The notes: a model not told the origin generated them from the letters alone. Shown: positions 9,112-37,195, numbered from the stretch's first letter. The stretch: DNA of 64,000 bases from an uncultured Alphaproteobacteria bacterium (GCA_902557145.1 CACDYZ010000002.1:1-64000); one strand, 5' to 3'. Translations and numbers: made by a program.

Positions 9112-9175
9112 TAAATTAGATATCAATTAAAGATGATTTAATATATATTAATAATATCTTTTAATAAAAAAATTC

Positions 9176-9646
9176 ATGGCTGGATCAGTAAATAAAGTAA
9201 TTCTTCTTGGTAACTTAGGTAAAGACCCTGACATTAGAGCAACTCAATCTGGCTCCAGATTGGCTAGTTTTTCTATCGCCACTTCAACTAAATATCGTAA
9301 CAAAGACACTCAGCAACTAGAGGATAAGACTGAATGGCATCGAGTCGTTGTATTTAACGATAAGCTTGCAGATATATGTGAAAAATATCTCAGAAAAGGT
9401 TCAAAGATATATATTGAAGGTCAGCTTCAAACAAGAAAATGGACAGATAACAATGGTGTAGATAAATACACAACTGAAGTAGTAATTCCAAACTATTCTG
9501 GAGTATTGACAATGTTAGATACTCGCTCCCAATCTTCTGTTAGTGAAGAAAGCAATAATAATCAATTAGACTCAGCTGCAGATGAAGCAATGGGTGGTTC
9601 AGAGACCTCAACAGCTGAACAACTCGATGATGATATTCCTTTTTAG
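9176..9646 (+). CDS. ssb: single-stranded DNA-binding protein
   Basis: Coats single-stranded DNA during replication and repair as a tetramer. The 156 residues hold an N-terminal OB fold (starting [15 protein letters not shown], with WHRVVVF and YIEGQL strands, about residues 5-110), then a Gln/Ser/Asn-rich linker and the acidic protein-interaction tip DDDIPF. The position divergent from uvrA and just upstream of gyrA is conserved in Alphaproteobacteria. Confidence 0.97.
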
Positions 9647-9654
9647 ATAAATCA

Positions 9655-20227: not shown

Positions 20228-21640
20228 TTAATCTAGCAGAGGTTTAAACTTACTAAAGTTAAATATCTCTTCATACTTTTTTGCAAAAGCAAATAATTTC
20301 AAATCACTTTTGTTTTTTCCAATTATTTGCATACCCATAGGCATACCTTTCTCATCAAACCCTACAGGAACAGTAATTGTGGGTAATTCAAGAAGACTTG
20401 ATAATATGAAAATTTCTAACCAACGATGATAGGTATCTAGTTCAAGAGAATTTATTTTTTTTGGAAATTGAAGAGTTTTATCAAATGGAAAAATTTGTGC
20501 AGATGGAAGGGCAAGAAAATCAAAATTTTTAAATATATTTTCTATCTGTTCATAACATTTATTTTTTTGATCTTTTGCAATTTGTAAATCTTTATCACTT
20601 ATATTTTTACCATTATTGTATTCCCATATGGCTTGATAAGTCATTGTATTGATATCTTTTATATTCATTGCCAAGGTATCTTCATAAATACTTTTTGATC
20701 TAAAGACAATCCAACTGCTCCATAAGGCATCATGATCGAAATCTAGCTTTAGTTTTTCAATTTTAATATTTAAATCTTCTAATTTTTTAAGTTGTTTTTC
20801 ACAAATATCTAAAATTTTATTCTCAATTTTATAATTAGAACTCATATTTGATAACCATCCAATTTTGATATTAATAAAATCCTTTTCATCTATTTTTTGA
20901 TTTTTAAAAGGCTGATTTAAATCAAATGAATAATCATCTTTAATGTCACTTCCAACTATCTCGTCTAATAAAATTGCCATATCATTTGGAGTTCGTGCCA
21001 AACATCCAGGTGTTGTGAGGACAGGTATTTTTCTGTCTTTGCCTCTATCTACAGAAATTAAACCTGGTGTAGGTCTATACCCATATATATTAGCATACGC
21101 TGCTGGCCCTCTGCATGATCCCATCTGATCTGTACCATCTGCAAATGGCAGTAATCCTGCAGCAACAGCGGTACTAGCTCCACCACTAGAACCTGCAGCA
21201 GATTTTGAAAAATCATAACAATTTGATGTAGGGCCAAACAATCTATTAATAGTATGACCACCTACACCCAATTCTGCGGTATTAGTCTTACCTATGATAA
21301 TAGCACCACTTTTAATAAGGCGATCAACAAACAAAGAATTTTTTTTTGGTAAATAATTTTTGGTTCCAGGAAAACCATAAGTTGTTCTAAGGCCAACTAC
21401 ATCACTCAAATCTTTTATAGCTATCGGAATACCGTTTAAAGGTTTATGAGTTTCTTTTAAATTATCTTTTTTAACAGCTTCTGAAATTAAAGTTTCTTTA
21501 TCCTTAAGAAGAATTATAGCATTTAAATTTGGATTATATTTCTCAATTCTATCTAAATAGTATTGCATCAATTCTTTAATTGATAATTGATTGCTTTTAA
21601 TATTTTGTATTATTTTTTCAACTGATTGATCTTCAAGCAT
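20228..21640 (-). CDS. amidase-signature-family hydrolase
   Basis: Hydrolyses a C-N amide bond with a Ser-cisSer-Lys triad. The 470 residues show the Lys in PIAIKDLSD (about residue 75), the Gly/Ser loop AAGSSGGAS with the cis-Ser, and the nucleophile region GTDQMGSCRGPA, which departs from the common GGSIR form but keeps the Ser. No signal peptide, so it acts in the cytoplasm. It sits 6 bases after the iron alcohol dehydrogenase in a five-gene operon. An amide or carbamoyl derivative of a small acid is a likely substrate, but this is inference. Confidence 0.9.
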   Translation of the reverse strand: MLEDQSVEKIIQNIKSNQLSIKELMQYYLDRIEKYNPNLNAIILLKDKETLISEAVKKDNLKETHKPLNGIPIAIKDLSDVVGLRTTYGFPGTKNYLPKKNSLFVDRLIKSGAIIIGKTNTAELGVGGHTINRLFGPTSNCYDFSKSAAGSSGGASTAVAAGLLPFADGTDQMGSCRGPAAYANIYGYRPTPGLISVDRGKDRKIPVLTTPGCLARTPNDMAILLDEIVGSDIKDDYSFDLNQPFKNQKIDEKDFINIKIGWLSNMSSNYKIENKILDICEKQLKKLEDLNIKIEKLKLDFDHDALWSSWIVFRSKSIYEDTLAMNIKDINTMTYQAIWEYNNGKNISDKDLQIAKDQKNKCYEQIENIFKNFDFLALPSAQIFPFDKTLQFPKKINSLELDTYHRWLEIFILSSLLELPTITVPVGFDEKGMPMGMQIIGKNKSDLKLFAFAKKYEEIFNFSKFKPLLD

Positions 21641-21646
21641 AAATGC

Positions 21647-22837
21647 TTAACGTGCTTGATTTATACTTTGAAGAACGATTTCTTTTAATTCTAACAATGA
21701 TGCCTTTTTAGGATTAGTTGCATAGGCTTGATCTTGCATTGCTTTTTGTGCAATTCTCTCAGCACAGTCTTCAGGAACATTGATTTCATTTAATCCTCTA
21801 GGAATATCTAATCTGTCCAGTATCTGTTCTATATTTTTGATAAACATTTCTACTGAATGATTTTCAAATTGCATTGCCTCAGACATTCTTTTAACTTTTT
21901 CATCCATACCAGGCAAATTAAAATTTAGAACAGGTGGTAAAACTATTGCATTAGTTAAACCATGATGAGTATTAAATTCTGCACCAACCATATGTGAGAT
22001 AGAGTGAACATTACCAAGACCTTTTAGAAATGATATTCCACCTAAATAAGAACCTATTATCATACCACCTCTGGCTAATAAATTACTTGGTTCTTCAACG
22101 GCTAAGACAAGAGACTTTGATATTAGATTGAGACTCTCTAAAGCGGCTCCATCACAAAGAGGATTAAAACCTGGCACACAATACCCTTCAATACTATGAA
22201 CCATAGCATCTACTCCTGTCCAAGCAGTTAATTTAGGTGGTAGTTCTAAAGTTAATTCCGGGTCAACTAATGTAAAGATAGGCCTTACATCAGGGTGCCA
22301 AATACAAAATTTCATCCCTTTCTCTAGATGTGTTACCATTGCTGTTATTTCAGTCTCAGCACCAGTTCCTGATGTTGTAGGAATTGTTATTATTTTTGGA
22401 AAGGCATTTTCTTTTGTAATTTTTGGAACAGGTTGTTCGAACTCAAAATCCCATAATGGTGTATCACTATTTACTGTTAAACATATTGATTTCCCACCAT
22501 CCATCGCACTCCCACCTCCAATAGCAATAATAGCATCATGTTTACCATTTCTAAACTGATCACATCCTTTGGATATTTCATCATCACGTGGATTTGGCGA
22601 TATATCATAAAAAATATCAGATTTGATATTATTTTTGGACAGTAACGTTTCTAATTTATTAATAAATGGAAGATCTTTACTGCCACTATCTGTAACAATT
22701 AATGGATTTTTAATCTCAGATTCTTCACAAAATTTTCCAATCTCATTAAATCTTCCAGGGCCGTAGTATGTTGTTGTTGGAAATGTCCAATCTTGATTAG
22801 AGAGAATGTCAGTTTCACTTAGTTTAAAGTTTTTCAT
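21647..22837 (-). CDS. iron-containing alcohol dehydrogenase
   Basis: NAD(P)-dependent, iron-type dehydrogenase of about 396 residues. The coenzyme loop is GGGSAMDGGKS, followed by IPTTSGTGAE; iron ligands are the Asp and His in GVDAMVHSIE and the His residues in GNVHSISHMVGAEFNTHHG. It is the first gene of the minus-strand operon, divergent from the second EamA transporter with only 41 bases between. Oxidation of a hydroxyl group on an imported substrate is the simplest role; the substrate is unknown. Confidence 0.93.
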   Translation of the reverse strand: MKNFKLSETDILSNQDWTFPTTTYYGPGRFNEIGKFCEESEIKNPLIVTDSGSKDLPFINKLETLLSKNNIKSDIFYDISPNPRDDEISKGCDQFRNGKHDAIIAIGGGSAMDGGKSICLTVNSDTPLWDFEFEQPVPKITKENAFPKIITIPTTSGTGAETEITAMVTHLEKGMKFCIWHPDVRPIFTLVDPELTLELPPKLTAWTGVDAMVHSIEGYCVPGFNPLCDGAALESLNLISKSLVLAVEEPSNLLARGGMIIGSYLGGISFLKGLGNVHSISHMVGAEFNTHHGLTNAIVLPPVLNFNLPGMDEKVKRMSEAMQFENHSVEMFIKNIEQILDRLDIPRGLNEINVPEDCAERIAQKAMQDQAYATNPKKASLLELKEIVLQSINQAR

Positions 22838-23799: not shown

Positions 23800-24834
23800 T
23801 TATTTTGATTTCATAGATTTCATAACAATAGTCCGATCAATTTCACCAACTAACTCTCCTGAATTGGTGCTTATAATAGGGTAGGCGGTGTCATCTTCAC
23901 AAATTTGATCGATTAAAGATTCAATTTTAGCATTTTCATCAATGCACTTTGTTTTATCTAAAAATAAGTTTTTAGACTCGTCAGAGCATTCTTTACGCAT
24001 AACTTTTCCTGCACTTAGCACTTTATATTTTGGAACATCTTCACAAAAATCTTTAACATATTGATCGACAGGATTTGCTACTATTTCCTCAGGTGTTCCT
24101 ACTTGGGATATTTCACCATCTTTCATGATAGCAATATGATCTCCCATTTTTATGGCTTCTAAAAAATCATGTGTAATAAAAACCATCGTTCTTTGAAGTT
24201 TTTTTTGTATGTCTAAAAGTTCATCTTGCATTTCTCTTCTAATAAGAGGGTCTAATGCAGAAAAAGGTTCATCGAATATTAATATTTCAGGTTCAACTGC
24301 CATAGCACGAGCTAAACCAACTCTTTGTTGCATACCACCAGATAATTCTCTTGGATAATTGTTGTGCCATCCTTTTAAACCAACAAGATTTAAAGACTCC
24401 ATTGCCTTGTCTAACCTATCTTGTTTTTTCTCTCCTCTAATTTCTAAACCGTAAGAAATATTCTCAAGCACAGTTCTGTGTGGGAAAAGTCCAAAGTGTT
24501 GAAAAACCATACTCATTTTATTCCTTCTAAGATTTAATAAGCTATTTCTGCTAATCTTAGTAACATCTGTGTCATCAATAATCACAGATCCTGATGTAGG
24601 TTCAATTAATCTTGTCAAACATCTTACCAAAGTTGATTTACCACTTCCTGAAAGGCCCATAACAACAAAAGTCTCTCCTTTTTGTATGGAGAAACTAACA
24701 TCCTTTACAGCAACTACATGACCTGTTTTTTCTTGAACTTCATCTCTAGTTAAATTTGGATCAAGATTTTCTAATATTTTCTTTTCATCATTTCCAAAAA
24801 TTTTCCATATATTTGAGCAAATAATTTTATCCAT
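23800..24834 (-). CDS. proV: glycine betaine/proline-type ABC transporter ATP-binding protein
   Basis: Energises import of betaine-like osmolytes. The 344 residues begin with the ProV/OpuAA-specific region (WKIFGNDEKK...VAVKDVSFSI), then Walker A GLSGSGKSTLVRCL, signature LSGGMQQRVGLARA and Walker B ILIFDEPFSALDP. It ends with a short CBS-like region (AYPIISTNSGELVGEIDR), reduced compared with enzymes that carry two full CBS domains. It is transcribed away from the fused permease gene (97-base divergent gap) and separated from proX by six genes, which is unusual for this transporter class. Confidence 0.93.
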   Translation of the reverse strand: MDKIICSNIWKIFGNDEKKILENLDPNLTRDEVQEKTGHVVAVKDVSFSIQKGETFVVMGLSGSGKSTLVRCLTRLIEPTSGSVIIDDTDVTKISRNSLLNLRRNKMSMVFQHFGLFPHRTVLENISYGLEIRGEKKQDRLDKAMESLNLVGLKGWHNNYPRELSGGMQQRVGLARAMAVEPEILIFDEPFSALDPLIRREMQDELLDIQKKLQRTMVFITHDFLEAIKMGDHIAIMKDGEISQVGTPEEIVANPVDQYVKDFCEDVPKYKVLSAGKVMRKECSDESKNLFLDKTKCIDENAKIESLIDQICEDDTAYPIISTNSGELVGEIDRTIVMKSMKSK

Positions 24835-24931: not shown

Positions 24932-27055
24932 ATGTCTTTAGATCAAAATTTAGAAGTAAATAAAAAGCTTAATAAAAATATAATCTTATATTTAAGTATT
25001 TTTATTATTGGAGCTATTGCTTATTATCTTTCAATTACAAACGAAGATCCTACTGTTTTTCCTAAATCTATTACCGATGAATTTAAATTTACTGCATGGA
25101 TAAATGCCGGTGAAGATTATTTAAAAGATAATTATAGATGGATAACTAGATTATTTGCTTCATTTTTACAGGCTGGTTACATGGCATTAGAAAATTTTTT
25201 CGTTGAGTCTCCCTGGATTTTAATAATGTCCTTGATGACTCTCCCTGCACTAGCATACGGAGGAATAAGATTAGCCTTATTTTGTATGTTCACAGTTTAC
25301 TTTTGGGGAGCTGTTGATATGTGGGAAGTCTCAATGCAAACTTTAGCCTTGATGGGGTTATCAGTAATTTTATCTGTAATTTTTGGAGTAATTCTAGGAA
25401 TACTCAGCTCACAAAATGATAGGTTTGAGAGTTTTCTCAAACCCATTTTAGATACTATGCAAGTGATGCCTGCCTTCGTCTACTTATTCCCTGCAATGTT
25501 CTTTTTTGGAATTGGTGGAGCTCCTGCAATACTCGCTACTCTAATTTATGCCATGCCACCAATTATAAGATTAACTAATTTGGGTATCAGACAAGTATCG
25601 AAAGAAACAATTGAGTCAGCTGAGTCATTTGGTTCAAACAAGTATCAACTTTTATTTAAAATTAAAATCCCGATGGCCTTACCAAGTATTATGATGGGAG
25701 TTAATCAAACAATAATGATGGCATTAGCGCTAGTTGTTCTTGCTACTTTTATTGGTGCTGAGGGTCTAGGTGGTCAAGTATGGCAGGCTATAAGAAAATT
25801 AGACGTAGGATGGGCTATGGAAGGTGGCCTTTGTATTCTATTTATGGCAATTATGTTTGACAGATTAAGTAGCGCAATTAGTAAAGATAAAGAAACTTTA
25901 CCAGATGATGTTGAAAAATTTTACTTATTACCCCAAAGTTTACAAAGATACCCTTTAGCTAATATAATAGAATTACCATTGAGGATAATAGTTAAATTTA
26001 CATATTTAATTTTTTCAAATGTTATTAATCTCTTAGCTCATTTTTTAGATAGCTCAATTTCAATCTTCAATAAATCATATGCTGGTATAGTTAAAAATTT
26101 TATGAACCAAAGATATTTTTTATTTTCCTCATTATTAATATTCGTTTTAATTTATATTTTTGACGCTTACTTTTTTACTGTTGGAACATTTCCAGAAACT
26201 TGGACTATTGAAATACAAAAACCAATTGAAAATGCTGTAAAGGCTATGACTCTTGATCCAGGATTTATTGCATTTGCAAAAGGTTTGAAATACTTCATTT
26301 ATTTGTATCTGCTCAAACCATTAAATGTATTTCTCACGCAAATACCTTGGTGGTACACAATGACTGTATTTATAATTATAGGGTACGTAACTGTGGGTTT
26401 AAGGTTTGCAACAATTACAGCAATTTTATTAGCTTTTATTGGAGCTACTGGAATGTGGATGCATTCAATGATTACATTATCTTCTGTATTAGTCTCAGTA
26501 TTAATTTGTTTTGTAATAGGAGTTCCGCTTGGAGTGCTAGCTTCTTATAACAAATGGTATAGAGATATTCAAAATGTCGTTCTAGATGCCATGCAAACTT
26601 TACCTTATTTCTGTTATTTAATTCCTGTTTTAATGTTTTTTGGTGGCAATATAGTATCAGCTGTCATAGCAACTGTTATTTATTCTGTACCACCAATCAT
26701 AAGATTAACAGCACTTGGTTTATCACAAGTATCGGGTGGCTATTCAGAGGTTTCAAAATCTTTTGGTGGCACAGGTATTCAAACTTTAAATAAAGTAAAA
26801 TTTCCATTAGCTGTTCCCAGTTTAGTAATGGGCTTCAATCAAACTGTTATAATGGCTTTTGCTATGCAAATCGTTACTCCTTTAATTGGAGGTAAAGGAC
26901 TTGGCCTACAAGTATTTAATGCACTCCAAAGGTCTGACACAGGCAGAGGGTTGTCAGCTGGTTTAGCTATTGTGCTTCTTGCTATTATTATAGATAGAAT
27001 TACTCACGCCTGGACTAAAAAACAAAGACAAGCACTTGGACTAGACCAGTCTTAA
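24932..27055 (+). CDS. betaine-type ABC transporter permease, two ProW domains fused
   Basis: At 707 residues this is about twice the length of a single ProW. Two binding-protein-dependent permease domains are visible, each with its own ATPase-coupling loop: ESAESFGSNKYQLLFKIKIP (about 230) and EVSKSFGGTGIQTLNKVKFP (about 605). They are followed by matching GAEGLGGQVW and GGKGLGLQVF segments. A single chain would therefore supply both halves of the channel. The stop overlaps the start of the molybdoenzyme gene by one base (TAATG). Substrate presumed betaine-like from the ProV/ProX partners. Confidence 0.92.
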   Translation: MSLDQNLEVNKKLNKNIILYLSIFIIGAIAYYLSITNEDPTVFPKSITDEFKFTAWINAGEDYLKDNYRWITRLFASFLQAGYMALENFFVESPWILIMSLMTLPALAYGGIRLALFCMFTVYFWGAVDMWEVSMQTLALMGLSVILSVIFGVILGILSSQNDRFESFLKPILDTMQVMPAFVYLFPAMFFFGIGGAPAILATLIYAMPPIIRLTNLGIRQVSKETIESAESFGSNKYQLLFKIKIPMALPSIMMGVNQTIMMALALVVLATFIGAEGLGGQVWQAIRKLDVGWAMEGGLCILFMAIMFDRLSSAISKDKETLPDDVEKFYLLPQSLQRYPLANIIELPLRIIVKFTYLIFSNVINLLAHFLDSSISIFNKSYAGIVKNFMNQRYFLFSSLLIFVLIYIFDAYFFTVGTFPETWTIEIQKPIENAVKAMTLDPGFIAFAKGLKYFIYLYLLKPLNVFLTQIPWWYTMTVFIIIGYVTVGLRFATITAILLAFIGATGMWMHSMITLSSVLVSVLICFVIGVPLGVLASYNKWYRDIQNVVLDAMQTLPYFCYLIPVLMFFGGNIVSAVIATVIYSVPPIIRLTALGLSQVSGGYSEVSKSFGGTGIQTLNKVKFPLAVPSLVMGFNQTVIMAFAMQIVTPLIGGKGLGLQVFNALQRSDTGRGLSAGLAIVLLAIIIDRITHAWTKKQRQALGLDQS

Positions 27056-29403
27056 TGAATTTCAAAAAAGATTTTCCTTTAACTAGTTCACATTGGGGAA
27101 CTTATAGGGCCAAAGTAAAGAATGGTAAAGTTAAAGAATTAATAGGATGGGAAAATGATAAAGATCCTTCTCCTATAGGACAAGGAATTGTAGATGTTCA
27201 TAATCATCAAACACGAATAGACTCACCTATGATAAGAAAAAGTTGGATGGATAAAGGTCCAGGTTCAAATAATAATTCAAGAGGAACAGATCCTTTTATA
27301 TCAATTTCTTGGGACGAGGCAGAGAAAATTGTATCCAATGAATTGAATAGAGTTAAGAATGATTTTGGTAATGCATCCATATTTGGAGGATCTTATGGAT
27401 GGGCTAGTGCTGGTAGATTTCATCATGCTCAAAGTCAACTCCATCGTTTTTTAAATTGTATTGGAGGTTACACAAGATCAAAATTTACATATAGTTTTGC
27501 TGCGGCAGAAGCAATGGTTCCTCATATACTGGGAAGTTATAGAGCTTATCTTGACACATGCACTAGTTGGGAATCAATTGAGGAGAATACTGAACTATTT
27601 ATATGTTTTGGTGGGGTTCCATTAAAAAATGGTCAAATAGCTCAAGGCGGAACTGGAAGCCACAAACAGAAAGAAAAGCTTATTCGTTCAGCTAATGCAG
27701 GAATAAAATTTGTTAATTTTAGTCCACTAAATAGTGACCTATTGGATGAGGTTAATGGGGAATGGCTAGCGTTAAGACCTAACACTGACGTTGCCATCAT
27801 GCTAGCTTTGGCACATACACTTTATAAAGAGAAATTGTATGATGATAAATTTATTGAAAAATACACGGAGGGTTTTGATAAGTTTCTTCCATATCTTCAA
27901 GGCGATATTGATGGAATTGTAAAAGATGCTAATTGGGCTTCATCAATTAGTGAAATTCCATCAGAAAAAATCATATCACTGGCAAAGGAGATGTCATCTA
28001 AGCGTACTATGATCTCTGTTAGTTGGTCTTTGACAAGACAAGATCACGGAGAACAACCTTTTTGGGCAGCTATAATGTTAGCATCCATGGTAGGACAAAT
28101 TGGTTTACCTGGAGGAGGTTTTGGATTTGGTTACAGCGCAACAAATCATATTGGAGGTCAATTTTCAATAATACCTGGAGCAGCCTTTCCTCAAACTCAA
28201 AATAAAATTGAAGACTTCATTCCTGTAGCAAGGATAAGTGATTTACTTTTAAATCCTGGCGGCAGTTTTGATTTTGATGGTAAAGAATATAAATACCCTG
28301 ATATTAAATTAATTTATTGGGCAGGGGGTAACCCATTTCACCATCATCAAGATATAAATAGGCTTTTACAAGCTTGGCAAAAACCTGAAACAATTATTTC
28401 AAATGAATGGTGTTGGAATTCATTAGCTAAATATTCTGATATTATTCTACCATGTACCACCTCACTTGAAAGACAAGATATAATGCTTACTCCTCGCGAT
28501 CCTTATGTTGTTTCAATGTCAAAATTAGTTGAACCTTTTGGTCTTGCAAAAAATGATTTTGATATTTTTAAAGGAATAGCAAATAAAATGGGTATTGAAA
28601 AAATATTTACAGAAGGTAGAGATGAAGAAGAATGGCAGAAATGGATCTATCAAGAAACGTCTATTAAATCCAAGTCATCAAACATAAATTTTCCAAGCTA
28701 TGAAGAGTTCAGAGATATAGGTTGGTTCAAAGTGCCTCCACCTCATGAAAATACATTAATGTTAAAAGATTTTAGAAAAGATCCAATCAACAATCCTTTG
28801 GCTACCCCTAGTGGAAAAATTGAAATATTTTCAAAAACAGTTGATAGCTTTAATTATGATGATTGCCCTGGACATCCCTCATGGTTAGAGCCATGTGAGT
28901 GGCTTGGACTTAAAAATAAAAAATATCCCTTACACCTAATTTCTAATCAACCCAAAAATAAACTTCATAGTCAAATGGACCATGGTAGTTACAGCCAATC
29001 GTTTAAGATCAAAGATCGAGAGCCCATTGAAATGCATTCAAATGATGCTAGTAGTCGAGGTATAAAAGATGGTGATATTGTAAAACTTTTTAACGATAGA
29101 GGTGCTTGTTTAGCTGGAGTTAATATAAACAATAAAATACGCCCAGGTGTTGTCCAAATTAGTACAGGTGCTTGGTACGATCCAGATAATCCAAAACATT
29201 TAAATACTATTTGTAAACATGGCAATCCAAATGTGCTCACAAAAGACAAGGGAACGTCTAAACTGGGTCAGGGGCCTATTGCACATTCATGTCTTATTGA
29301 AGTAGAATTAGTAAAAGATAATATCTCACCTGTGACAGCGTATGATCCCCCAACAATAATTAGAGATAATAAAAATGATTTCAATACATCTATAGACAAA
29401 TAA
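27055..29403 (+). CDS. cytoplasmic molybdopterin oxidoreductase, DMSO/TMAO/biotin-sulfoxide reductase family
   Basis: The 782-residue protein begins at the catalytic domain (HWGTYRAKVKNGKV), with no twin-arginine leader and no N-terminal [4Fe-4S] cysteine motif, as in cytoplasmic BisC rather than periplasmic TorA/DorA. The active-site GSYGW places Tyr at 114 and Trp at 116, and the likely molybdenum ligand Ser is at 147 in TYSFAAA; the same numbers are known for mature Rhodobacter DMSO reductase. The C-terminal cofactor-binding domain (HLISNQPKNKLHSQMD) is intact. It is coupled to the fused permease upstream and the DmdA-like gene downstream. Reduction of an S- or N-oxide is the family reaction; the true substrate is unknown. 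Confidence 0.88.
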   Translation: MNFKKDFPLTSSHWGTYRAKVKNGKVKELIGWENDKDPSPIGQGIVDVHNHQTRIDSPMIRKSWMDKGPGSNNNSRGTDPFISISWDEAEKIVSNELNRVKNDFGNASIFGGSYGWASAGRFHHAQSQLHRFLNCIGGYTRSKFTYSFAAAEAMVPHILGSYRAYLDTCTSWESIEENTELFICFGGVPLKNGQIAQGGTGSHKQKEKLIRSANAGIKFVNFSPLNSDLLDEVNGEWLALRPNTDVAIMLALAHTLYKEKLYDDKFIEKYTEGFDKFLPYLQGDIDGIVKDANWASSISEIPSEKIISLAKEMSSKRTMISVSWSLTRQDHGEQPFWAAIMLASMVGQIGLPGGGFGFGYSATNHIGGQFSIIPGAAFPQTQNKIEDFIPVARISDLLLNPGGSFDFDGKEYKYPDIKLIYWAGGNPFHHHQDINRLLQAWQKPETIISNEWCWNSLAKYSDIILPCTTSLERQDIMLTPRDPYVVSMSKLVEPFGLAKNDFDIFKGIANKMGIEKIFTEGRDEEEWQKWIYQETSIKSKSSNINFPSYEEFRDIGWFKVPPPHENTLMLKDFRKDPINNPLATPSGKIEIFSKTVDSFNYDDCPGHPSWLEPCEWLGLKNKKYPLHLISNQPKNKLHSQMDHGSYSQSFKIKDREPIEMHSNDASSRGIKDGDIVKLFNDRGACLAGVNINNKIRPGVVQISTGAWYDPDNPKHLNTICKHGNPNVLTKDKGTSKLGQGPIAHSCLIEVELVKDNISPVTAYDPPTIIRDNKNDFNTSIDK

Positions 29404-30600
29404 ATGGGAAATTTACAAGAAGAAGTTGATTTAAAAAAGACAATTAAAATAAGTGCGCGTAGATTTGAGGAGTCACCATATATTGAGAGAACTCAAACTT
29501 CAAATATGGTAAGAGGTGTTTATGCAGGTAGATACTTTCCAATGCAAATTGATGAAGATCCCATAGAAAAATATTGGTTGTTAAGACAAAAGGCACTAAT
29601 ATTTGATGTACCAGAAAAACCTATTGAAATATCTGGAAAAGACTCAGTTTCTTTTTTAAATAAAGTATTAACAAGAGAAATTTCAAACACGAAAAAGGGT
29701 AGAGGTTACTACGCTCTTGCTTGTACACCACAAGGTGGAATTTTTATGGACGGTGTTCTATTTAGATTTGATGAAAATAAATTTTGGTATGTTCAAGCAG
29801 ATGGTCCATTTGAAGATTGGTTGATTGCTCACAGCTCTGGTTACGACATTAAAATAAAAGATCCTAAATCTAGAGTTCTTCAAATTCAAGGTCCTGCATC
29901 AATTGATATTATGAAAGCAGCATCGAATGGCAAGATTGATGAAAAAATGCCATACTTCAGCTCTGATTTTTTTGATCTCGGTGGCCAAGAACTATATGTT
30001 TCCAGAACTGGTTTTACAAATGAACTTGGTTTTGAAATATTTTCAGATGGTTTTGAAACTGAACATTTAGCTTTATGGGACCATCTTAGTGAATGTGGTA
30101 AACCCTATGGTATGCAGTTTTCTGCTTCCAGAGCTATGACCATTAGGCGAATAGAAGGAGGTATTTTAGGTAATTTAACTGACATTGATACAACCACGAC
30201 TCCTTTTGAGGCTGGTCTTGGGTATTTTGTAAATATGAATAAAGATTTTATTGGAAGAGACGCACTAATCAATAAAGATAAAAGAACATGTCTGTTTGGA
30301 ATAACTTGTAAATCAGCTATTCCATCAGCTAAAAGTAAAATTAAATATAACGGAATAGGTATAGGCTACATAACAGCAGGTGTTCCATCACCGACACTTC
30401 AACAGGGTATTGGCTACGTAAGATTTTATAATCCTGGTAATTGGAAAAATAAAGAAGTAGAAATATTGCTGCCGGATAAATCATCACATAAGGGAATTAT
30501 TGTTGATTTACCATTTTATGATAAAGAAAAAAAAATTGTTAAAGGAATAGATAGATCAATTCCCTCCAAACCTGATAATATTTCTTTTGATGCTAAATAA
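29404..30600 (+). CDS. DmdA/GcvT-like tetrahydrofolate-dependent C1 transferase
   Basis: Belongs to the aminomethyltransferase family, which moves methyl or methylene groups to tetrahydrofolate. The 398 residues include GxDSVSFLNKVLTREI, the LQIQGPAS segment, RTGFTNELGFEIF, RRIEGG and TPFEAGLGYFV. The N-terminal portion (ARRFEESPYIERTQ) resembles the DMSP demethylase start more than classic GcvT. No gcvH or gcvP is near. It begins immediately after the molybdoenzyme stop and overlaps the SDR gene, so the three proteins should be made together. A demethylase for the imported compound is inferred, not shown. Confidence 0.85.
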   Translation: MGNLQEEVDLKKTIKISARRFEESPYIERTQTSNMVRGVYAGRYFPMQIDEDPIEKYWLLRQKALIFDVPEKPIEISGKDSVSFLNKVLTREISNTKKGRGYYALACTPQGGIFMDGVLFRFDENKFWYVQADGPFEDWLIAHSSGYDIKIKDPKSRVLQIQGPASIDIMKAASNGKIDEKMPYFSSDFFDLGGQELYVSRTGFTNELGFEIFSDGFETEHLALWDHLSECGKPYGMQFSASRAMTIRRIEGGILGNLTDIDTTTTPFEAGLGYFVNMNKDFIGRDALINKDKRTCLFGITCKSAIPSAKSKIKYNGIGIGYITAGVPSPTLQQGIGYVRFYNPGNWKNKEVEILLPDKSSHKGIIVDLPFYDKEKKIVKGIDRSIPSKPDNISFDAK

Positions 30601-31378
30601 TTTACTTAAGAATAAAAAAATCATTATATCTGCAGGAGCTTCAGGAATAGGTCTAGCATCTGTAAAATTATTATTATCTCAAGGTGCTATAGTTTATACT
30701 TGTGACATTGATAAAAAACACATTAACAAACTAAAAAGACACTCAAAGTTTAATAAAAAACTATTTATCTTTGAATGTGATGCTTCTAAAGAAATTGAAG
30801 TTAAACATTTGTTTAAACAAATTTCAAATAAAACTAACAAAATAGATGGTTTGATAAATAATATAGGTATTGCTGGACCTACAGCTCCCTTAGATAAAAT
30901 TAATTCTGATGATTGGGAAAAGACTTTGCATATAAATATTAATAGTCATTTTTATTTTACTAAATATGCAATACCTTTGATTAAAAAATCAAAATTTGGA
31001 TCAGTAGTTAATATTTCTTCTACTGCGGGAATTGATGGCTTTCCAAACAGATCTCCGTATGCAGCTAGTAAATGGGCTTTAATAGGTATTACTAAAACTT
31101 TAGCAATGGAATTAGGAAAATTTAATATTCGAGTTAATGCTATATGCCCAGGATCTGTTAAAGGCTCTAGAATGAATAGAGTAATAAAAGCTAAAGCCAA
31201 AATTTTAAATCAATCTATTAAATCAATTGAAAAAGATTTTGTATCAATGAGCTCTTTAAAACAGTGGGTATACGAAGATGACATTGCAAAAATGTGCTCC
31301 TTTTTAATTTCTAATGACTCACTCAGAGTTTCTGGTCAAGTGATCTCAGTTGATGGTAATACTGAGAGAATGGATTAA
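30590..31378 (+). CDS. short-chain dehydrogenase/reductase
   Basis: NAD(P)-dependent SDR of 262 residues: nucleotide-binding SAGASGIG at the N-terminus, NNIGIAG, the catalytic Ser in VNISSTAG, and YAASK with the catalytic Tyr and Lys, followed by VNAICPGSV. The track start is a TTG at 30587; the ATG one codon later is preferred. Last gene of the operon with the permease, molybdoenzyme and DmdA-like gene, and convergent with the BKACE gene, sharing TTAA at the stops. A 3-hydroxyacid dehydrogenase that feeds the BKACE is attractive but unproven. Confidence 0.9.
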   Translation: MLNNLLKNKKIIISAGASGIGLASVKLLLSQGAIVYTCDIDKKHINKLKRHSKFNKKLFIFECDASKEIEVKHLFKQISNKTNKIDGLINNIGIAGPTAPLDKINSDDWEKTLHININSHFYFTKYAIPLIKKSKFGSVVNISSTAGIDGFPNRSPYAASKWALIGITKTLAMELGKFNIRVNAICPGSVKGSRMNRVIKAKAKILNQSIKSIEKDFVSMSSLKQWVYEDDIAKMCSFLISNDSLRVSGQVISVDGNTERMD

Positions 31379-32259
31379 TTTTTATTAAGTTTTAAATATT
31401 CACGAGTTTCTTCAGGGCTCATTATAGAGGAACCTAATTCATGAACTATGTTAATTGCCTTTTCAACTAACTGTGGGTTAGTTGCAAGTTTTCCTTTTGA
31501 TAAATATAAATTGTCTTCAAGTCCAACTCTTGGATTGCCACCAAGTAAAACTGTTTGTGCAACAAATGGCATTTCATTTCTTGAAATTGCAAAACCAGAC
31601 CAAATTGCATTTTTAGGCATGACATCTAACATTGCTATCATAGCTGATGTTTTAGCTGGTGCTCCCCATGGAATACCCAAACACATTTGATATAATGGTG
31701 GATCACTAAGAAGACCCTCTTCATAAAGTTGTGCACCAAACCACATGTTACCTAAATCAAAAGCCTCAACTTCAGGTTTAACACCTATTTCTTTTAATCG
31801 CTTAGCTGCTTTTCTCAAATCATTAGGTGTATTAACTGCTAACACCGAGCTATCACCAAAATTTAAAGTACCAGCATCAAGTGTGCAAATTTCTGGAAGC
31901 AACTCCTCTACATGTGATATTCTTTCCATAATATTGGCCATATCAGTATATGGTCCAAAATCCATTGGATTTTCTCCTTCACCGATATCTAAATCTCCAC
32001 CCATTCCTGTTGTCAGATTTATAATTACATCAGTATCGCTTGATCTAATAGTTTCAACCACTTCTTTATAAAATTCAAACTTACGGCTTGGTGTTCCGTC
32101 TTCCTCTCTGACATGAATATGAACTATAGAGGCACCAGCTTGAGCTGACTCTATTGAAGACTTGGCAATCTGTTTTGGTGTTTTAGGAAGATCAGGGTGT
32201 TTTGAAGCAGTATCACCTGAGCCATTTACTGCACAAGTAAGAAAAACTTTATTTTGCAT
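31375..32259 (-). CDS. beta-keto acid cleavage enzyme (BKACE, DUF849), dehydrocarnitine-cleavage type
   Basis: BKACEs condense a beta-keto acid with acetyl-CoA to give acetoacetate and a new acyl-CoA, using a zinc in a TIM barrel. The 294 residues show GSGDTASKHPDLPKTPKQIA, HIHVREEDGTPSRK with the zinc His pair, NLTTGMGGD, and CLGIPWGAPA. By recollection these match the branch acting on 3-dehydrocarnitine (giving betainyl-CoA). The track start is a TTG at 32268; the ATG at 32259 (MQNKVFLTCAV) fits the family. It is transcribed divergently from proX, consistent with a carnitine or related betaine substrate. Confidence 0.88.
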   Translation of the reverse strand: MQNKVFLTCAVNGSGDTASKHPDLPKTPKQIAKSSIESAQAGASIVHIHVREEDGTPSRKFEFYKEVVETIRSSDTDVIINLTTGMGGDLDIGEGENPMDFGPYTDMANIMERISHVEELLPEICTLDAGTLNFGDSSVLAVNTPNDLRKAAKRLKEIGVKPEVEAFDLGNMWFGAQLYEEGLLSDPPLYQMCLGIPWGAPAKTSAMIAMLDVMPKNAIWSGFAISRNEMPFVAQTVLLGGNPRVGLEDNLYLSKGKLATNPQLVEKAINIVHELGSSIMSPEETREYLKLNKN

Positions 32260-32380
32260 GAAAATCAATACTATTACACTTAATTAATATTTAAAAATCA
32301 AATCTTAATTAAAATTATATCTATTGATGAATAAATTGCATATGTACTTTGCTATTTTTTTGATAAAATAAACAATAAAT

Positions 32381-32394: not shown

Positions 32395-33423
32395 ATGAGA
32401 TTATCTAAAACAATTATTACTTTTATTCTATCCTCTATTCTTTTTACTGCAACTTTCAGTAAAGCTAATGCAGAAAAATTATTAGCTGCTATTGCTGACT
32501 GGACTGGTGGAGAGATTTCATGCCAAGTTGCTGTAAGTATACTTGAAGATGAGTTGGGATATGAAATTGATAGAATAGTATTTGCTTCAGGAACAGGCCT
32601 CTGGGAGGCTATTGCTGCAGGAGATATTGATTTTGCTTGTGAGTCTTGGCCTAGTTATGCTGAAGCAGATGAGGTTATGTTAAACGGTGATTTAATTCAT
32701 GGTGGAGAAGTTAAAATGACTTACTCTGGTGATGGAAGTGTCAAACTTTTAGGAACTGTTGGTATCACTGGTATGTCCGATTACTATGTTCCAAAATATT
32801 GGGCTGATGCTAACCCAGACTTTTCTGGTGTCGCTGATTTAAATAATTATAAATCTGATTTTGCAACTATGGAAAGTGGTGACAAAGGAAGACTAATTGG
32901 TTGTCCAGTTGCTGGATGGAACTGTCACGATCAAAAAAGATTAGACCTACTTGGTTTAGACTTTGTTGCTGATGAATTAGGTACCGAAACAGCTGCTCTT
33001 GCTGAAGCTCAAGGTATGTATGACAGAGGAGAGCCTTTTTTAATGTATCTTTGGGAACCACATTGGTTCTTTGGTGTTAACGATTTGGTTGGTGTAAAAT
33101 TAGCTCCAAACCAATCTTGTGATACATTTACAGAGGCTAACAACTGGGAAACTTGTGGTGCTGACTATTGGCCAGCTACAGGTTGGGCTGTTGACTATCC
33201 AATGAACTACGGTAATCCTGAAACATTTGCAAAACCTGAAAATCAACTAGCATTAGAATTTTTTGGTAAGATGGCTTTATCAAATGCTGATCAAGCTGCA
33301 ATGTTAGTTCAGGTTCGTGAAGGTGGAGAACTTAATGACGTAGTAGCTGAGTGGAAAGCAAATAATAAATCTACTTGGGAAAAATGGTTGCCTACTTCAG
33401 TAGAAGGTCTAACAGGATCTTAG
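32395..33423 (+). CDS. proX: glycine betaine-type ABC transporter substrate-binding protein
   Basis: Periplasmic receptor of the ProX/OpuAC type. The 342 residues start with a Sec signal peptide (LSKTIITFILSSILFTATFSKANA, cleavage likely after ANA). Aromatic residues that could form the quaternary-ammonium cage occur in motifs such as ADWTGGE, CESWPSYAEA, YLWEPHWFFG and YWPATGWAV. It is monocistronic, with a strong ribosome binding site and a downstream hairpin. Carnitine, glycine betaine or DMSP-like ligands are all possible; the binding site cannot be resolved further from sequence. Confidence 0.92.
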   Translation: MRLSKTIITFILSSILFTATFSKANAEKLLAAIADWTGGEISCQVAVSILEDELGYEIDRIVFASGTGLWEAIAAGDIDFACESWPSYAEADEVMLNGDLIHGGEVKMTYSGDGSVKLLGTVGITGMSDYYVPKYWADANPDFSGVADLNNYKSDFATMESGDKGRLIGCPVAGWNCHDQKRLDLLGLDFVADELGTETAALAEAQGMYDRGEPFLMYLWEPHWFFGVNDLVGVKLAPNQSCDTFTEANNWETCGADYWPATGWAVDYPMNYGNPETFAKPENQLALEFFGKMALSNADQAAMLVQVREGGELNDVVAEWKANNKSTWEKWLPTSVEGLTGS

Positions 33424-33537: not shown

Positions 33538-35034
33538 TTGACCAATTATCTCTATAAACACCTTATACAACCAAATATAAACAATAAAAAAACATTTTTA
33601 TTACTAGACGATGGAACTGAGATTTCTTATGAAGATTTTATATCTCTTGCTTCAAAAATTTCTTATAAATTAACTAATCTAGGACTAAAATCAGGTGATC
33701 GTATTCTTGTAAAGTCGCCCAAGTGTAAAGAAACATTATCTCTTTATTTGTCATCAATTCAAACAGGATCTGTTTTTTTTCCCCTAAATTCCAGTTATAC
33801 TTTAAATGAAACCATCTATTTTATTGAGGACTCAAAACCATCTATCTTAATTTGTGAAAGTTCAGAAGTTAAAAGTATTAAACCAATTTGTGATAAAATT
33901 GGATGTAAAATTTTATCCTTAAATGCAAACGGTGAGGGAGAAGTTACTGATGATCTGGAAGATCTAGATAGTTTTTTTGAACCTAACAATAGAGTAAATG
34001 ACGATTTAGCAGCTCTTCTATATACATCAGGAACTACTGGTAAACCAAAAGGTGCCATGCTAACTCATCAAAATTTAGTATCAAATGCTTATCAGCTTAT
34101 AAATTTATGGAATATTGATAAGAGTGACACTCTTATCCATGCACTTCCTATTTATCACACTCATGGATTATTTGTTGCTATAAACACTTCTTTGATGAGT
34201 GGAGCTTCCATCAGATTTATTAAAAATTTTAATATAGATTTAGTAATTGAGGCATTTAAGTATTCCACTCTTATGATGGGAGTGCCTACTTTTTATACAA
34301 GATTGATCAAAGATAAAAGGCTAGATAAGTCACTAACAAAAAATATGAAATTATTTATTTCAGGTAGTGCTCCTTTATTAACTGAAACACATCAAGATTT
34401 TTATAACATTACTGGTCATCGAATATTAGAGCGTTACGGCATGACTGAAACAAATATGAATACTTCTAATCCTTTTCATGGAGAAAGAAAAGCTGGATCA
34501 GTAGGTAAGCCTTTAAAAGATATAAATATAAGAATTAATAATACTAAGGGTGACAAAGATACAGTGCTTAGTAAAATTGGTATGATTGAAATTAAAGGTC
34601 CTAATGTTTTTAAAGGCTATTTAAATAATCCTAAAAAAACTCAAGATGCGTTTACTAAAGATGGGTATTTTATTACAGGAGATATTGGTTACTTTGACAA
34701 AGATGGATACTTATTTATATCAGGAAGAAATAAAGATCTAATTATAAGTGGAGGTTTTAATGTATATCCTAAAGAAATAGAAGATGTTATAAATCAACAT
34801 AAATCTGTAATTGAGTCTGCTGTATTTGGTATAAAAGATAATGATTTAGGAGAAGTTCCTATAGCAGCAGTAGTTATGATTAATGATAAAACAGAAATAA
34901 AAGATCTTTCAGTATATGTAGATAATAATTTAGTTAAATATAAAATTCCAAAGAAGTATATAGTACTAAATGAACTTCCAAAAAACGTAATGGGAAAAGT
35001 TCAAAAAAATATCTTAAAAGATAAATATTCTTAA
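33538..35034 (+). CDS. matB: malonyl-CoA synthetase-like acyl-CoA ligase
   Basis: AMP-forming ligase that activates a carboxylic acid with CoA. The 498 residues carry the P-loop YTSGTTGKPKGAML, ALPIYHTHGLFVA, YGMTETNMNTSNPF (A5 region), GDIGYFDKDGYLFISGR and the C-terminal Lys region PKNVMGKVQK. The HTHGLF and TETNMNTSNPF segments are typical of MatB, which makes malonyl-CoA from malonate. The only plausible start is a TTG at 33538. It follows proX by 114 bases. In this setting it could also activate a related dicarboxylate or betaine-derived acid. Confidence 0.85.
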   Translation: MTNYLYKHLIQPNINNKKTFLLLDDGTEISYEDFISLASKISYKLTNLGLKSGDRILVKSPKCKETLSLYLSSIQTGSVFFPLNSSYTLNETIYFIEDSKPSILICESSEVKSIKPICDKIGCKILSLNANGEGEVTDDLEDLDSFFEPNNRVNDDLAALLYTSGTTGKPKGAMLTHQNLVSNAYQLINLWNIDKSDTLIHALPIYHTHGLFVAINTSLMSGASIRFIKNFNIDLVIEAFKYSTLMMGVPTFYTRLIKDKRLDKSLTKNMKLFISGSAPLLTETHQDFYNITGHRILERYGMTETNMNTSNPFHGERKAGSVGKPLKDINIRINNTKGDKDTVLSKIGMIEIKGPNVFKGYLNNPKKTQDAFTKDGYFITGDIGYFDKDGYLFISGRNKDLIISGGFNVYPKEIEDVINQHKSVIESAVFGIKDNDLGEVPIAAVVMINDKTEIKDLSVYVDNNLVKYKIPKKYIVLNELPKNVMGKVQKNILKDKYS

Positions 35035-35738: not shown

Positions 35739-36647
35739 ATGAATAAACTTAATGTTGTTTACAATCAGAACTACGACATCCCCTTACCAAGCGGTCACAG
35801 ATTTGTGGGTACAAAATTTTCTGACCTATATCATTTTATTAAAGACTCTAATCTATTTAAAGATTTGATTGTTCATCAAAGTGTATCTGCACCTATAAAA
35901 GATGTTCAAAATGTCCATGATAGTGAATATGTAATTAATGTTAAAAAGGGTAGTCTATTGAGAAATCAAGAGAGGAGAATAAATCTACCTTGGAGTGAGA
36001 GATTAGCTATGAGATCTTTTTTAGCAATACAAGGAACACTACAAACATCTTATTTGGCTTTAGAGAATGGTGTAGCATGTCATTTGGCAGGAGGAACACA
36101 TCATGCCTTTAAAGATTGTGGATCTGGTTTTTGTGTGTTTAACGATTTAGCCTTTGCTTCAATAAATTTACTTAATCAAAAAAAAGTTAATAAAATTTTA
36201 ATTTTAGATTTAGATGTCCATCAAGGTGATGGTACAGCTTCAATTTGTCAAAATATTGACGATATTTTTACATGCTCGATACATTGTAAAAACAATTTTC
36301 CTTTTGATAAAAAAACAAGCAATTTAGATATACCTATTGATGACGGTATAGGAGATGATGAATATTTAAATATCCTTAAACACACTCTTGATCAAGTGAA
36401 TGCAAAGATTGAACCTGATATTGTATTTTATGATGCAGGAGTTGATGTTCACTATAATGACGATCTTGGAAACTTAAACCTTACTGATGAAGGTATAAAA
36501 AAAAGAGATGAAATTGTATGCAATTATTTTAAGGACAAAAAAATACCCTTATGTACGGTTATTGGTGGTGGTTACAGTAAAAGCAGAAAGGAATTAGCCT
36601 CGAGGCACTTCTCTATATTTAATACTGTATTTGAAGTTTATTTATGA
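35739..36647 (+). CDS. histone deacetylase-family (acetylpolyamine amidohydrolase-like) hydrolase
   Basis: Zinc-dependent deacylase of the HDAC/AcuC/APAH superfamily, 302 residues. Motifs in order: LPSGHRF, the active-site His pair in AGGTHHAF, GSGFCVFND, zinc ligands in DLDVHQGDGT and DAGVDVH, and the catalytic Tyr region GGGYS. In bacteria such proteins deacetylate polyamines or other small acyl amides, sometimes lysine side chains. It overlaps the convergent bioY gene by 10 bases at the 3' ends. The link to the betaine genes upstream is only positional. Confidence 0.9.
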   Translation: MNKLNVVYNQNYDIPLPSGHRFVGTKFSDLYHFIKDSNLFKDLIVHQSVSAPIKDVQNVHDSEYVINVKKGSLLRNQERRINLPWSERLAMRSFLAIQGTLQTSYLALENGVACHLAGGTHHAFKDCGSGFCVFNDLAFASINLLNQKKVNKILILDLDVHQGDGTASICQNIDDIFTCSIHCKNNFPFDKKTSNLDIPIDDGIGDDEYLNILKHTLDQVNAKIEPDIVFYDAGVDVHYNDDLGNLNLTDEGIKKRDEIVCNYFKDKKIPLCTVIGGGYSKSRKELASRHFSIFNTVFEVYL

Positions 36648-37195
36648 TTTTTTGAATTAACTCTTTGAATCAACCCAAAAATTATTGCTATAGCTAATAT
36701 AATCTTTAGAAACTCACTATATAAAAAGGGCATTAAACCAAGAGTAACTGCTTGTTCATAACCTACAAAGAACGATAGGTGACTTACACCACATAAGAAT
36801 ATTATAAGAGCACCAATAAAAACTGTAAGAGATAATTTAATTAAATTAGTGGTTACTTCCTTGTTGAAAACGAAAGATATGAAGAAGGCAGCAACTACCA
36901 TACCGTATAAAAACCCGAAAGTAGGAGAGAATATATAACCAATTCCTCCACCATTGGCAAAAATAGGCAAACCAAGTGTACCTAAAACTACATAAATAAA
37001 AGTTGAGTAAAATCCAACCATTCCCATTGAAGCTGCTATGAAATAAACCACGAGTGTTTGTAATGTCATTGGTACAGGGTAAAAAGGAATTGAAATCTTT
37101 GATGATACGGTAAGTAAAATCACACCTAATATAGTTAAATAGTATTTGGAGAAGAAATGGGTACCAAAAATATTTTCTGAAATTGTTCTACTCAT
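36638..37195 (-). CDS. bioY: biotin transporter BioY
   Basis: Membrane S-component that imports biotin, alone or with an ECF module. The 185 residues form about six helices with the family motifs IPFYPVPMTLQTLVVY and GGGIGYIFSPTFGFLYG. No bioM/bioN genes are adjacent, so either it works alone or it shares an ECF module encoded elsewhere. It follows a small unknown gene by 6 bases. Suggests the cell relies on external biotin, though biotin synthesis genes could lie outside the window. Confidence 0.94.
   Translation of the reverse strand: MSRTISENIFGTHFFSKYYLTILGVILLTVSSKISIPFYPVPMTLQTLVVYFIAASMGMVGFYSTFIYVVLGTLGLPIFANGGGIGYIFSPTFGFLYGMVVAAFFISFVFNKEVTTNLIKLSLTVFIGALIIFLCGVSHLSFFVGYEQAVTLGLMPFLYSEFLKIILAIAIIFGLIQRVNSKNHK

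What the first reader, a model, noticed from the sequence alone, without database searches (positions are those of the whole stretch)
24932..31378. Coupled operon joins a betaine-type permease to a cytoplasmic DMSO-reductase-family enzyme, a DmdA-like C1 transferase and an SDR
Seen: proWW stop and molybdoenzyme start overlap (TAATG), the DmdA-like gene starts right at the next stop, and the SDR overlaps it by 11 bases. The molybdoenzyme has Tyr114, Trp116 and Ser147 as in DMSO reductase but no Tat leader. Established: family members reduce S- or N-oxides; DmdA relatives demethylate onto tetrahydrofolate. Inference: the cell imports an oxidised methylated compound (for example a DMSP sulfoxonium form, a betaine N-oxide-like acid or a methyl sulfoxide), reduces it in the cytoplasm and passes the methyl to folate. 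I know of no described pathway with this set of genes.
Basis: partly seen in the sequence, partly recalled or inferred. Interest (0 to 1): 0.72.

Follow-up and report, generated by a model that had tools for sequence, protein, structure and literature searches.

The report
Transporter–molybdoenzyme–folate C1-transferase operon
Two groups of abundant ocean bacteria carry the same tightly packed gene set: an importer for betaine-like compounds, a cytoplasmic molybdenum oxide-reductase and a folate-linked one-carbon transferase; it is kept or lost as one block and probably feeds on an oxidised methylated osmolyte, although its substrate is unknown.

Summary
In detail: proWW, the molybdoenzyme, a GcvT-like transferase and an SDR are coupled as described. 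The block is not private to this genome. The proWW–molybdoenzyme–GcvT order, with proX and proV, recurs in 28 HIMB59-type and 18 Pelagibacteraceae contigs, where truncation allows. In 37 same-genus genomes permease and molybdoenzyme are both present (24) or both missing (13). Corrections: (1) the transferase is not DmdA; it is sister to the GcvT-like gene beside TMAO demethylase, and this genome has its own dmdA and TMAO operon; (2) the SDR is peripheral; (3) the molybdoenzyme keeps Tyr114, Trp116 and Ser147, but its clade is separate from DorA/TorA/BisC and has Gln where DorA has His643; (4) proX, proV, Fe-ADH and an amidase belong to the block. The ProX pocket keeps the four Trp, the Thr and the Tyr of the DMSP-binding protein DmpX, which favours a carboxylated zwitterion over TMAO. 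Best model: import, C1 transfer to folate, and cytosolic oxide reduction of one osmolyte. For DMSOP, demethylation first and sulfoxide reduction second makes better chemical sense. Substrate and step order are inference.

The parts
20228..21640 (-). Amidase, conserved neighbour
   Evidence: NF005686 over cut-off; kept in both lineages
21647..22837 (-). Iron-containing alcohol dehydrogenase; conserved member of the block
   Evidence: PF00465/PF25137; kept in HIMB59-type and Pelagibacteraceae contigs; no close copy in genomes without the block, only a 53-54% paralogue in three of them
23800..24834 (-). ProV-type ATPase of the importer
   Evidence: TIGR01186 367 bits, cut-off 326.6; synteny
24932..27055 (+). 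Tandem-duplicated ProW permease (two permease domains)
   Evidence: two stretches of TIGR03416, 426 bits in sum, cut-off 363; PF00528 two stretches
27055..29403 (+). Cytoplasmic DMSO-reductase/BisC-family molybdoenzyme (Ser147 Mo ligand by alignment)
   Evidence: TIGR00509 961 bits; its curated cut-off 1017 is not reached; DorA 1dms E=5e-207; residues; tree
29404..30600 (+). GcvT-like aminomethyltransferase (predicted THF-dependent C1 transferase), sister to the TMAO-operon GcvT-like protein
   Evidence: PF01571+PF08669; tree
30587..31378 (+). SDR; overlaps the GcvT-like gene here but peripheral in other lineages (ATG start at 30590)
   Evidence: PF13561/PF00106; position varies; absent from genomes without the block
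31375..32268 (-). BKACE beta-keto acid cleavage enzyme, peripheral (carnitine-type accessory)
   Evidence: PF05853 300 bits; lies beside a 3-hydroxyacyl-CoA-dehydrogenase-family gene in L069
32395..33423 (+). ProX-type periplasmic binding protein of the importer; follows GcvT directly in Pelagibacteraceae contigs
   Evidence: PF04069; pocket W36, T67, W85, W175, Y218, W220 invariant

Best explanation
The block is an uptake-and-demethylation module for one methylated, oxidised zwitterionic osmolyte. ProX-ProV-ProWW imports a carboxylated sulfonium- or ammonium-type betaine. The GcvT-like protein moves a C1 unit from it, or from its oxidation product, to tetrahydrofolate. The molybdoenzyme removes an S- or N-bound oxygen in the cytoplasm. 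The leading candidate is dimethylsulfoxonium propionate (DMSOP): GcvT-like demethylation would give 3-methylsulfinylpropionate, which the BisC-type enzyme would reduce to methylmercaptopropionate, an intermediate of the ordinary DMSP route. Shown: conserved coupling, co-occurrence as a unit, family assignments and the betaine-type pocket. Inferred: that transporter and enzymes share a substrate, the reductive direction, the step order and the identity of the substrate.
For: proWW-molybdoenzyme-GcvT(-proX) order in 28 HIMB59-type and 18 Pelagibacteraceae contigs, several truncated, and molybdoenzyme-GcvT in a third lineage, L093. Permease and molybdoenzyme both present in 24 and both absent in 13 of 37 same-genus genomes; SDR, Fe-ADH and ProX follow the same pattern in a test set. 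Paired molybdoenzymes form one clade and so do their GcvT partners. ProX keeps the DmpX residues that bind DMSP. The same genome has a parallel operon proX-proV-proWW-Tdm-GcvT-like, with tmm next to it, so a betaine-type importer joined to a GcvT-like protein is an established layout here. Whether DMSOP is demethylated is stated as an open question (PMC10686828).
Against: No substrate was tested. The molybdoenzyme family is widespread in Alphaproteobacteria (82 of 385 genomes with a match at E<=1e-100) and the close homologues mostly have no GcvT neighbour, so its basic reaction need not involve methyl transfer. DorA His643 is Gln in the whole subfamily. The genome already has dmdA, so DMSP itself needs no second demethylase. 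ProX has Ser128 where DmpX and TmoX have Glu. The neighbours include carnitine-type genes. No dmdB/dmdC/dmdD search was made in this genome.
Confidence: 0.42

Rival explanations
1. The importer brings in carnitine, gamma-butyrobetaine or a related quaternary ammonium acid; SDR and BKACE take part in its breakdown to glycine betaine, and the molybdoenzyme acts on a nitrogen-linked oxidised intermediate rather than on sulfur.
For: BKACE and SDR next to the operon; in SAR11 contigs the flanks hold 3HCDH, BKACE, CoA-transferase III and a gamma-butyrobetaine-hydroxylase-like gene. ProX pocket fits a trimethylammonium acid.
Against: These genes are not in the conserved core: most Pelagibacteraceae contigs have proX right after GcvT and no SDR or BKACE between them. 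No known carnitine route needs a molybdoenzyme (own knowledge).
Confidence: 0.17
2. The molybdoenzyme is a general repair enzyme for methionine or biotin sulfoxide and only shares a promoter with the transporter.
For: TIGR00509 (BisC family) is its best profile; cytosolic, no Tat motif; a BioY-like (biotin transporter) gene lies at 36638-37195 (named from the translation only).
Against: It comes and goes with the permease, Fe-ADH, SDR and ProX, and the permease junction is kept across lineages. BioY is not conserved beside it in Pelagibacteraceae contigs. It is outside the BisC/TorZ clade.
Confidence: 0.13
3. A TMAO system: the importer takes up TMAO or another amine N-oxide and the molybdoenzyme reduces it as a cytoplasmic TMAO reductase.
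For: Family reduces N-oxides (TorA profile 733 bits); the closest solved binding protein is TmoX; the GcvT partner is sister to the TMAO-operon GcvT.
Against: The genome has a separate Tmo-type importer with Tdm and Tmm over their curated cut-offs, and a TMAO reductase would run against Tmm. ProX has Tyr218 as in DmpX where TmoX has Phe, and lacks the TmoX Glu131.
Confidence: 0.1
4. The molybdoenzyme runs oxidatively or as a transhydroxylase and yields a formaldehyde-level unit that the GcvT-like protein places on THF, as proposed for DmmD.
For: A DmmD-like role, formaldehyde onto H4F, is proposed for the stand-alone GcvT protein of amine operons (PMC5520151). The family also holds a transhydroxylase, matched weakly.
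Against: Tyr114, Trp116, Ser147, Trp and Arg of the oxide-reductase site are kept; reduction is the usual direction of this subgroup (own knowledge).
Confidence: 0.08
5. A passenger island: genes inherited together without a shared pathway.
For: Whole block present or absent together; its flanks vary between lineages.
Against: Overlapping junctions and the order proV, proWW, molybdoenzyme, GcvT, proX persist at 60-80% protein identity; a molybdoenzyme is an expensive gene to keep in streamlined genomes (inference).
Confidence: 0.1

Closest known systems
TMAO operon TmoX/V/WW-Tdm-GcvT-like with Tmm in HIMB59-type genomes
   Same: Betaine-type ABC importer with doubled permease followed by a catabolic enzyme and a stand-alone GcvT-like protein; the GcvT proteins are sisters.
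   Different: A molybdoenzyme stands where Tdm stands; GcvT only 47% identical; binding-protein pocket differs; both operons occur in this genome.
DMSP demethylation by DmdA
   Same: GcvT fold, folate-dependent C1 chemistry predicted; DMSP-type binding pocket in ProX.
   Different: DmdA profile score 155 against cut-off 410; no Asn-Asp-Pro signature; separate dmdA in the genome.
DMSO/TMAO/biotin-sulfoxide reductases (DorA, TorA, BisC, TorZ)
   Same: Fold and active-site Tyr114, Trp116, Ser147 and the equivalents of DorA Trp322 and Arg326.
   Different: Own clade with 100/100 support; Asp145 to Thr, WAADP to FGGVP, His643 to Gln; no Tat motif.
DmpXWV DMSP importer
   Same: Four-Trp cage, Thr and Tyr residues conserved.
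   Different: Glu113 is Ser128; weak overall similarity (E=3e-6 by profile); specificity unmeasured.
Roseobacter plasmid cluster (Tritonibacter NZ_CP136707, Phaeobacter NZ_CP010709)
   Same: Molybdoenzyme (60%) and a GcvT-like gene (35%) in one cluster of about 15 kb.
   Different: The two genes are about 11 kb apart; TRAP importer, CoA ligase, crotonase, aldehyde dehydrogenase; GcvT only distantly related.

Membership tests
DmdA (DMSP demethylase) | Score over the curated NF009133 cut-off (410 bits) | tested here: not met
   155.2 bits; the genome's own DmdA scores 505.6
DmdA (DMSP demethylase) | Falls with P. ubique DmdA in a tree | tested here: not met
   Separate starred clade
DmdA (DMSP demethylase) | THF-dependent demethylation of DMSP | not testable with these tools
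   needs enzyme assay
GcvT-like stand-alone aminomethyltransferase (TMAO-operon type) | GCV_T and GCV_T_C domains, clade with the TMAO-operon GcvT-like protein | tested here: met
   PF01571, PF08669; joint clade 99/97
DMSO reductase family (BisC/DorA/TorA type) | Molybdopterin domains and Ser ligand at position 147 | tested here: met
   PF00384, PF01568, PF18364; Ser147 aligned
DorA / TorA / BisC proper | Within the clade of the characterised enzymes | tested here: not met
   100/100 split; TIGR00509 cut-off 1017.55 not reached at 961
DorA / TorA / BisC proper | S- or N-oxide reductase activity | not testable with these tools
   needs enzyme assay
Betaine/choline-family ABC importer (ProXVW) | ProV, ProW and OpuAC-type ProX parts | tested here: met
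   TIGR01186 and TIGR03416 over cut-off, PF04069 over cut-off
DmpX (DMSP-binding protein) | RnDmpX residues W35, T64, W84, W152, Y200, W202 and E113 | tested here: inconclusive
   Six of seven conserved and invariant in 15 sequences; E113 is Ser128
TmoX (TMAO-binding protein) | Glu131 kept (residue role from own knowledge) | tested here: not met
   Ser128 at that column, Asp129 next
TMAO demethylase operon | Tdm beside the importer | tested here: not met
   No Tdm in this operon; Tdm lies in G000:C5

The most novel reading that the evidence does not exclude
A dedicated DMSOP assimilation pathway in SAR11-like bacteria: specific import, folate-dependent demethylation of the sulfoxonium to 3-methylsulfinylpropionate, and reduction by a cytosolic molybdoenzyme to methylmercaptopropionate, which would keep DMSOP sulfur in the cell instead of releasing DMSO.
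Probability: 0.17. Interest if true: 0.87.

Novelty: new variant of a known kind. Interest (0 to 1): 0.62.

Why it matters
HIMB59- and SAR11-type cells are abundant in surface oceans and turn over methylated osmolytes. A conserved importer–molybdoenzyme–C1-transferase block in streamlined genomes points to a methylated compound that these cells use but that has not been assigned to them. If the substrate is DMSOP or a relative, it would fill a gap named in the literature (whether DMSOP is demethylated, PMC10686828) and bear on marine sulfur and DMSO budgets. The hypothesis can be tested directly with a few recombinant proteins.

Tried and rejected
DmdA assignment: rejected by cut-off, signature and tree. 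SDR as a core member: rejected, position varies. Acid–CoA ligase at 33538 as part of the pathway: it is a malonyl-CoA synthase by curated cut-off and not found in the Pelagibacteraceae contigs. Molybdoenzyme as the reason for molybdenum-cofactor genes: the MoaA-type family is also found in genomes without the block. Roseobacter plasmid cluster as a DmdABCD-like route: its crotonase and ligase did not point to DMSP enzymes. DmmD identity: no DmmA-type gene (PF11927) found in G000, and the weak matches in three genus genomes lie elsewhere. AlphaFold model of ProX had pLDDT 63 and was not used for a fold search. Searches for papers on this set, on DMSOP reduction and on methylsulfinylpropionate found none; PMC11485210 is not held.

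Full report
Observation. Profile searches give a betaine/choline-type permease with two permease domains, a BisC-family molybdoenzyme, a GcvT-like protein and an SDR. Against DorA (PDB 1dms) the molybdoenzyme aligns in register, with Tyr114, Trp116 and Ser147 conserved, and no twin-arginine motif lies in its first 45 residues.

The unit is wider than the coordinates. ProV (23800-24834, minus strand) and ProX (32395-33423) complete the importer. Iron alcohol dehydrogenase, amidase and two EamA-type permeases flank it in the same order in related contigs.

Conservation. A scan of public genomes returned 62 loci. Twenty-eight are HIMB59-type contigs (molybdoenzyme 85-97% identical) and 18 are Pelagibacteraceae contigs (about 71-75%; one partial gene 67%). 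One further single-cell genome (L093, about 65%) has molybdoenzyme and GcvT adjacent. Several contigs are truncated inside the block. The proWW–molybdoenzyme junction is a one-base overlap in all HIMB59-type contigs where it can be read, and -4 to +1 in Pelagibacteraceae; molybdoenzyme–GcvT spacing is mostly -1 to 21 bases, with a few larger apparent overlaps. In Pelagibacteraceae proX follows GcvT directly, so SDR and BKACE are insertions in the HIMB59 version or losses elsewhere. In a sample of 399 genomes of the phylum only the window's own genome had a GcvT match as strong as E<=1e-95, so the pair appears restricted to a few marine lineages.

Co-occurrence. Of 37 same-genus genomes, 24 have both the molybdoenzyme and the permease and 13 have neither (Fisher p=3e-10). 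This p-value ignores shared ancestry and incomplete genomes, so it is descriptive. In a test set SDR, Fe-ADH and ProX follow the same pattern. One exception, G008, has ProX 769 bases from a contig start and may have lost the rest to an assembly gap. A genome of the genus (G030) is one contig of 1,410,127 bases, the size I recall for HIMB59; the genus name rests on that recollection and was not checked against a named record. It lacks the block.

The transferase. In a tree the GcvT-like protein and its partners from the other lineages form a clade whose sister is the GcvT-like protein beside TMAO demethylase (99/97 for the joint clade), apart from DmdA, E. coli GcvT and the Tdm C-terminal domain (some long branches). 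It has Met-Asp-Gly where DmdA has Asn-Asp-Pro. The genome has its own DmdA (505.6 bits over a cut-off of 410) and its own TMAO operon proX-proV-proWW-Tdm-GcvT-like, with tmm beside it. The stand-alone GcvT protein DmmD of amine operons is proposed to put formaldehyde on H4F (PMC5520151), so both methyl and methylene transfer remain possible.

The molybdoenzyme. It falls in a large, mainly alphaproteobacterial clade separated from DorA, TorA, BisC and TorZ with 100/100 support. The wider family is common (82 of 385 class genomes have a match at E<=1e-100) and the neighbours of its homologues vary: methanethiol-oxidase-family SBP56 in L077 (family function from own knowledge), dimethylformamidase in Sulfitobacter, a CoA-ligase and GcvT-like cluster on Roseobacter plasmids. 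Trp and Arg equivalents of DorA 322 and 326 are kept, but His643 is Gln throughout and Asp145 is usually Thr. An oxide reductase is the natural reading of the retained residues; the substrate cannot be transferred from DorA.

The binding protein. Profile alignment to 7yle places W36, T67, W85, W175, Y218 and W220 on the DMSP-binding residues W35, T64, W84, W152, Y200 and W202 described for RnDmpX in PMC10030565. All six are invariant in 15 homologues. Tyr200 to Phe abolishes DMSP binding in DmpX; TmoX has Phe there. Glu113 of DmpX and Glu131 of TmoX are replaced by Ser128. That 7yle is RnDmpX is my inference from the match of residue numbers, not a record I read. The pocket favours a carboxylated sulfonium or ammonium zwitterion.

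Mechanism. Putting these together: import of a zwitterionic osmolyte, C1 transfer to folate, and oxide reduction in the cytoplasm. Whether DmdA demethylates DMSOP is listed as an open question (PMC10686828). The steps after import are inference.

Limits. The open-access library omits most subscription journals. Gene neighbourhood does not prove a shared substrate. The tree of the molybdoenzyme has composition bias in 13 rows. I did not search for dmdB/C/D. Pair counts across contigs are not independent events, since many contigs come from close relatives.

Noticed in passing
L093:2476-7380 (contig of SAG AG-343-N19): Next to molybdoenzyme-GcvT, on the other strand, lie a luciferase-like oxidoreductase, an NADP:F420 oxidoreductase-type gene and an F420-0 ligase gene, so a marine single-cell genome probably makes coenzyme F420.
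   Followed up: partly
L057:5571-8545: 3HCDH-type gene, an FrhB-like (F420 hydrogenase beta) gene and the SDR follow proX in a Pelagibacteraceae contig.
   Followed up: no
L059:14749-22215: CoA-transferase III, aldehyde dehydrogenase (56% to the Tritonibacter plasmid one), a gamma-butyrobetaine-hydroxylase-like gene and a second proVWX set lie downstream.
   Followed up: partly
L077:9971-15594: Rhizobiaceae MAG: molybdoenzyme homologue beside an SBP56 gene (family of methanethiol oxidase) and a ferredoxin-type gene.
   Followed up: no
L203:14491-19034: Sulfitobacter plasmid: molybdoenzyme homologue divergent from an N,N-dimethylformamidase beta-subunit gene.
   Followed up: no
L211:1774-2943 and 8920-10026: The genome has a true DmdA and, 6 kb away, a second DmdA-profile protein below the cut-off (379.6 bits), which groups with DmdA in the tree.
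   Followed up: partly
window 33538-35034: Acyl-CoA ligase scores as malonyl-CoA synthase over the curated cut-off.
   Followed up: yes
window 35739-37195: Histone-deacetylase-family protein next to a BioY-like ORF (BioY named from the translated ORF, not scanned).
   Followed up: no
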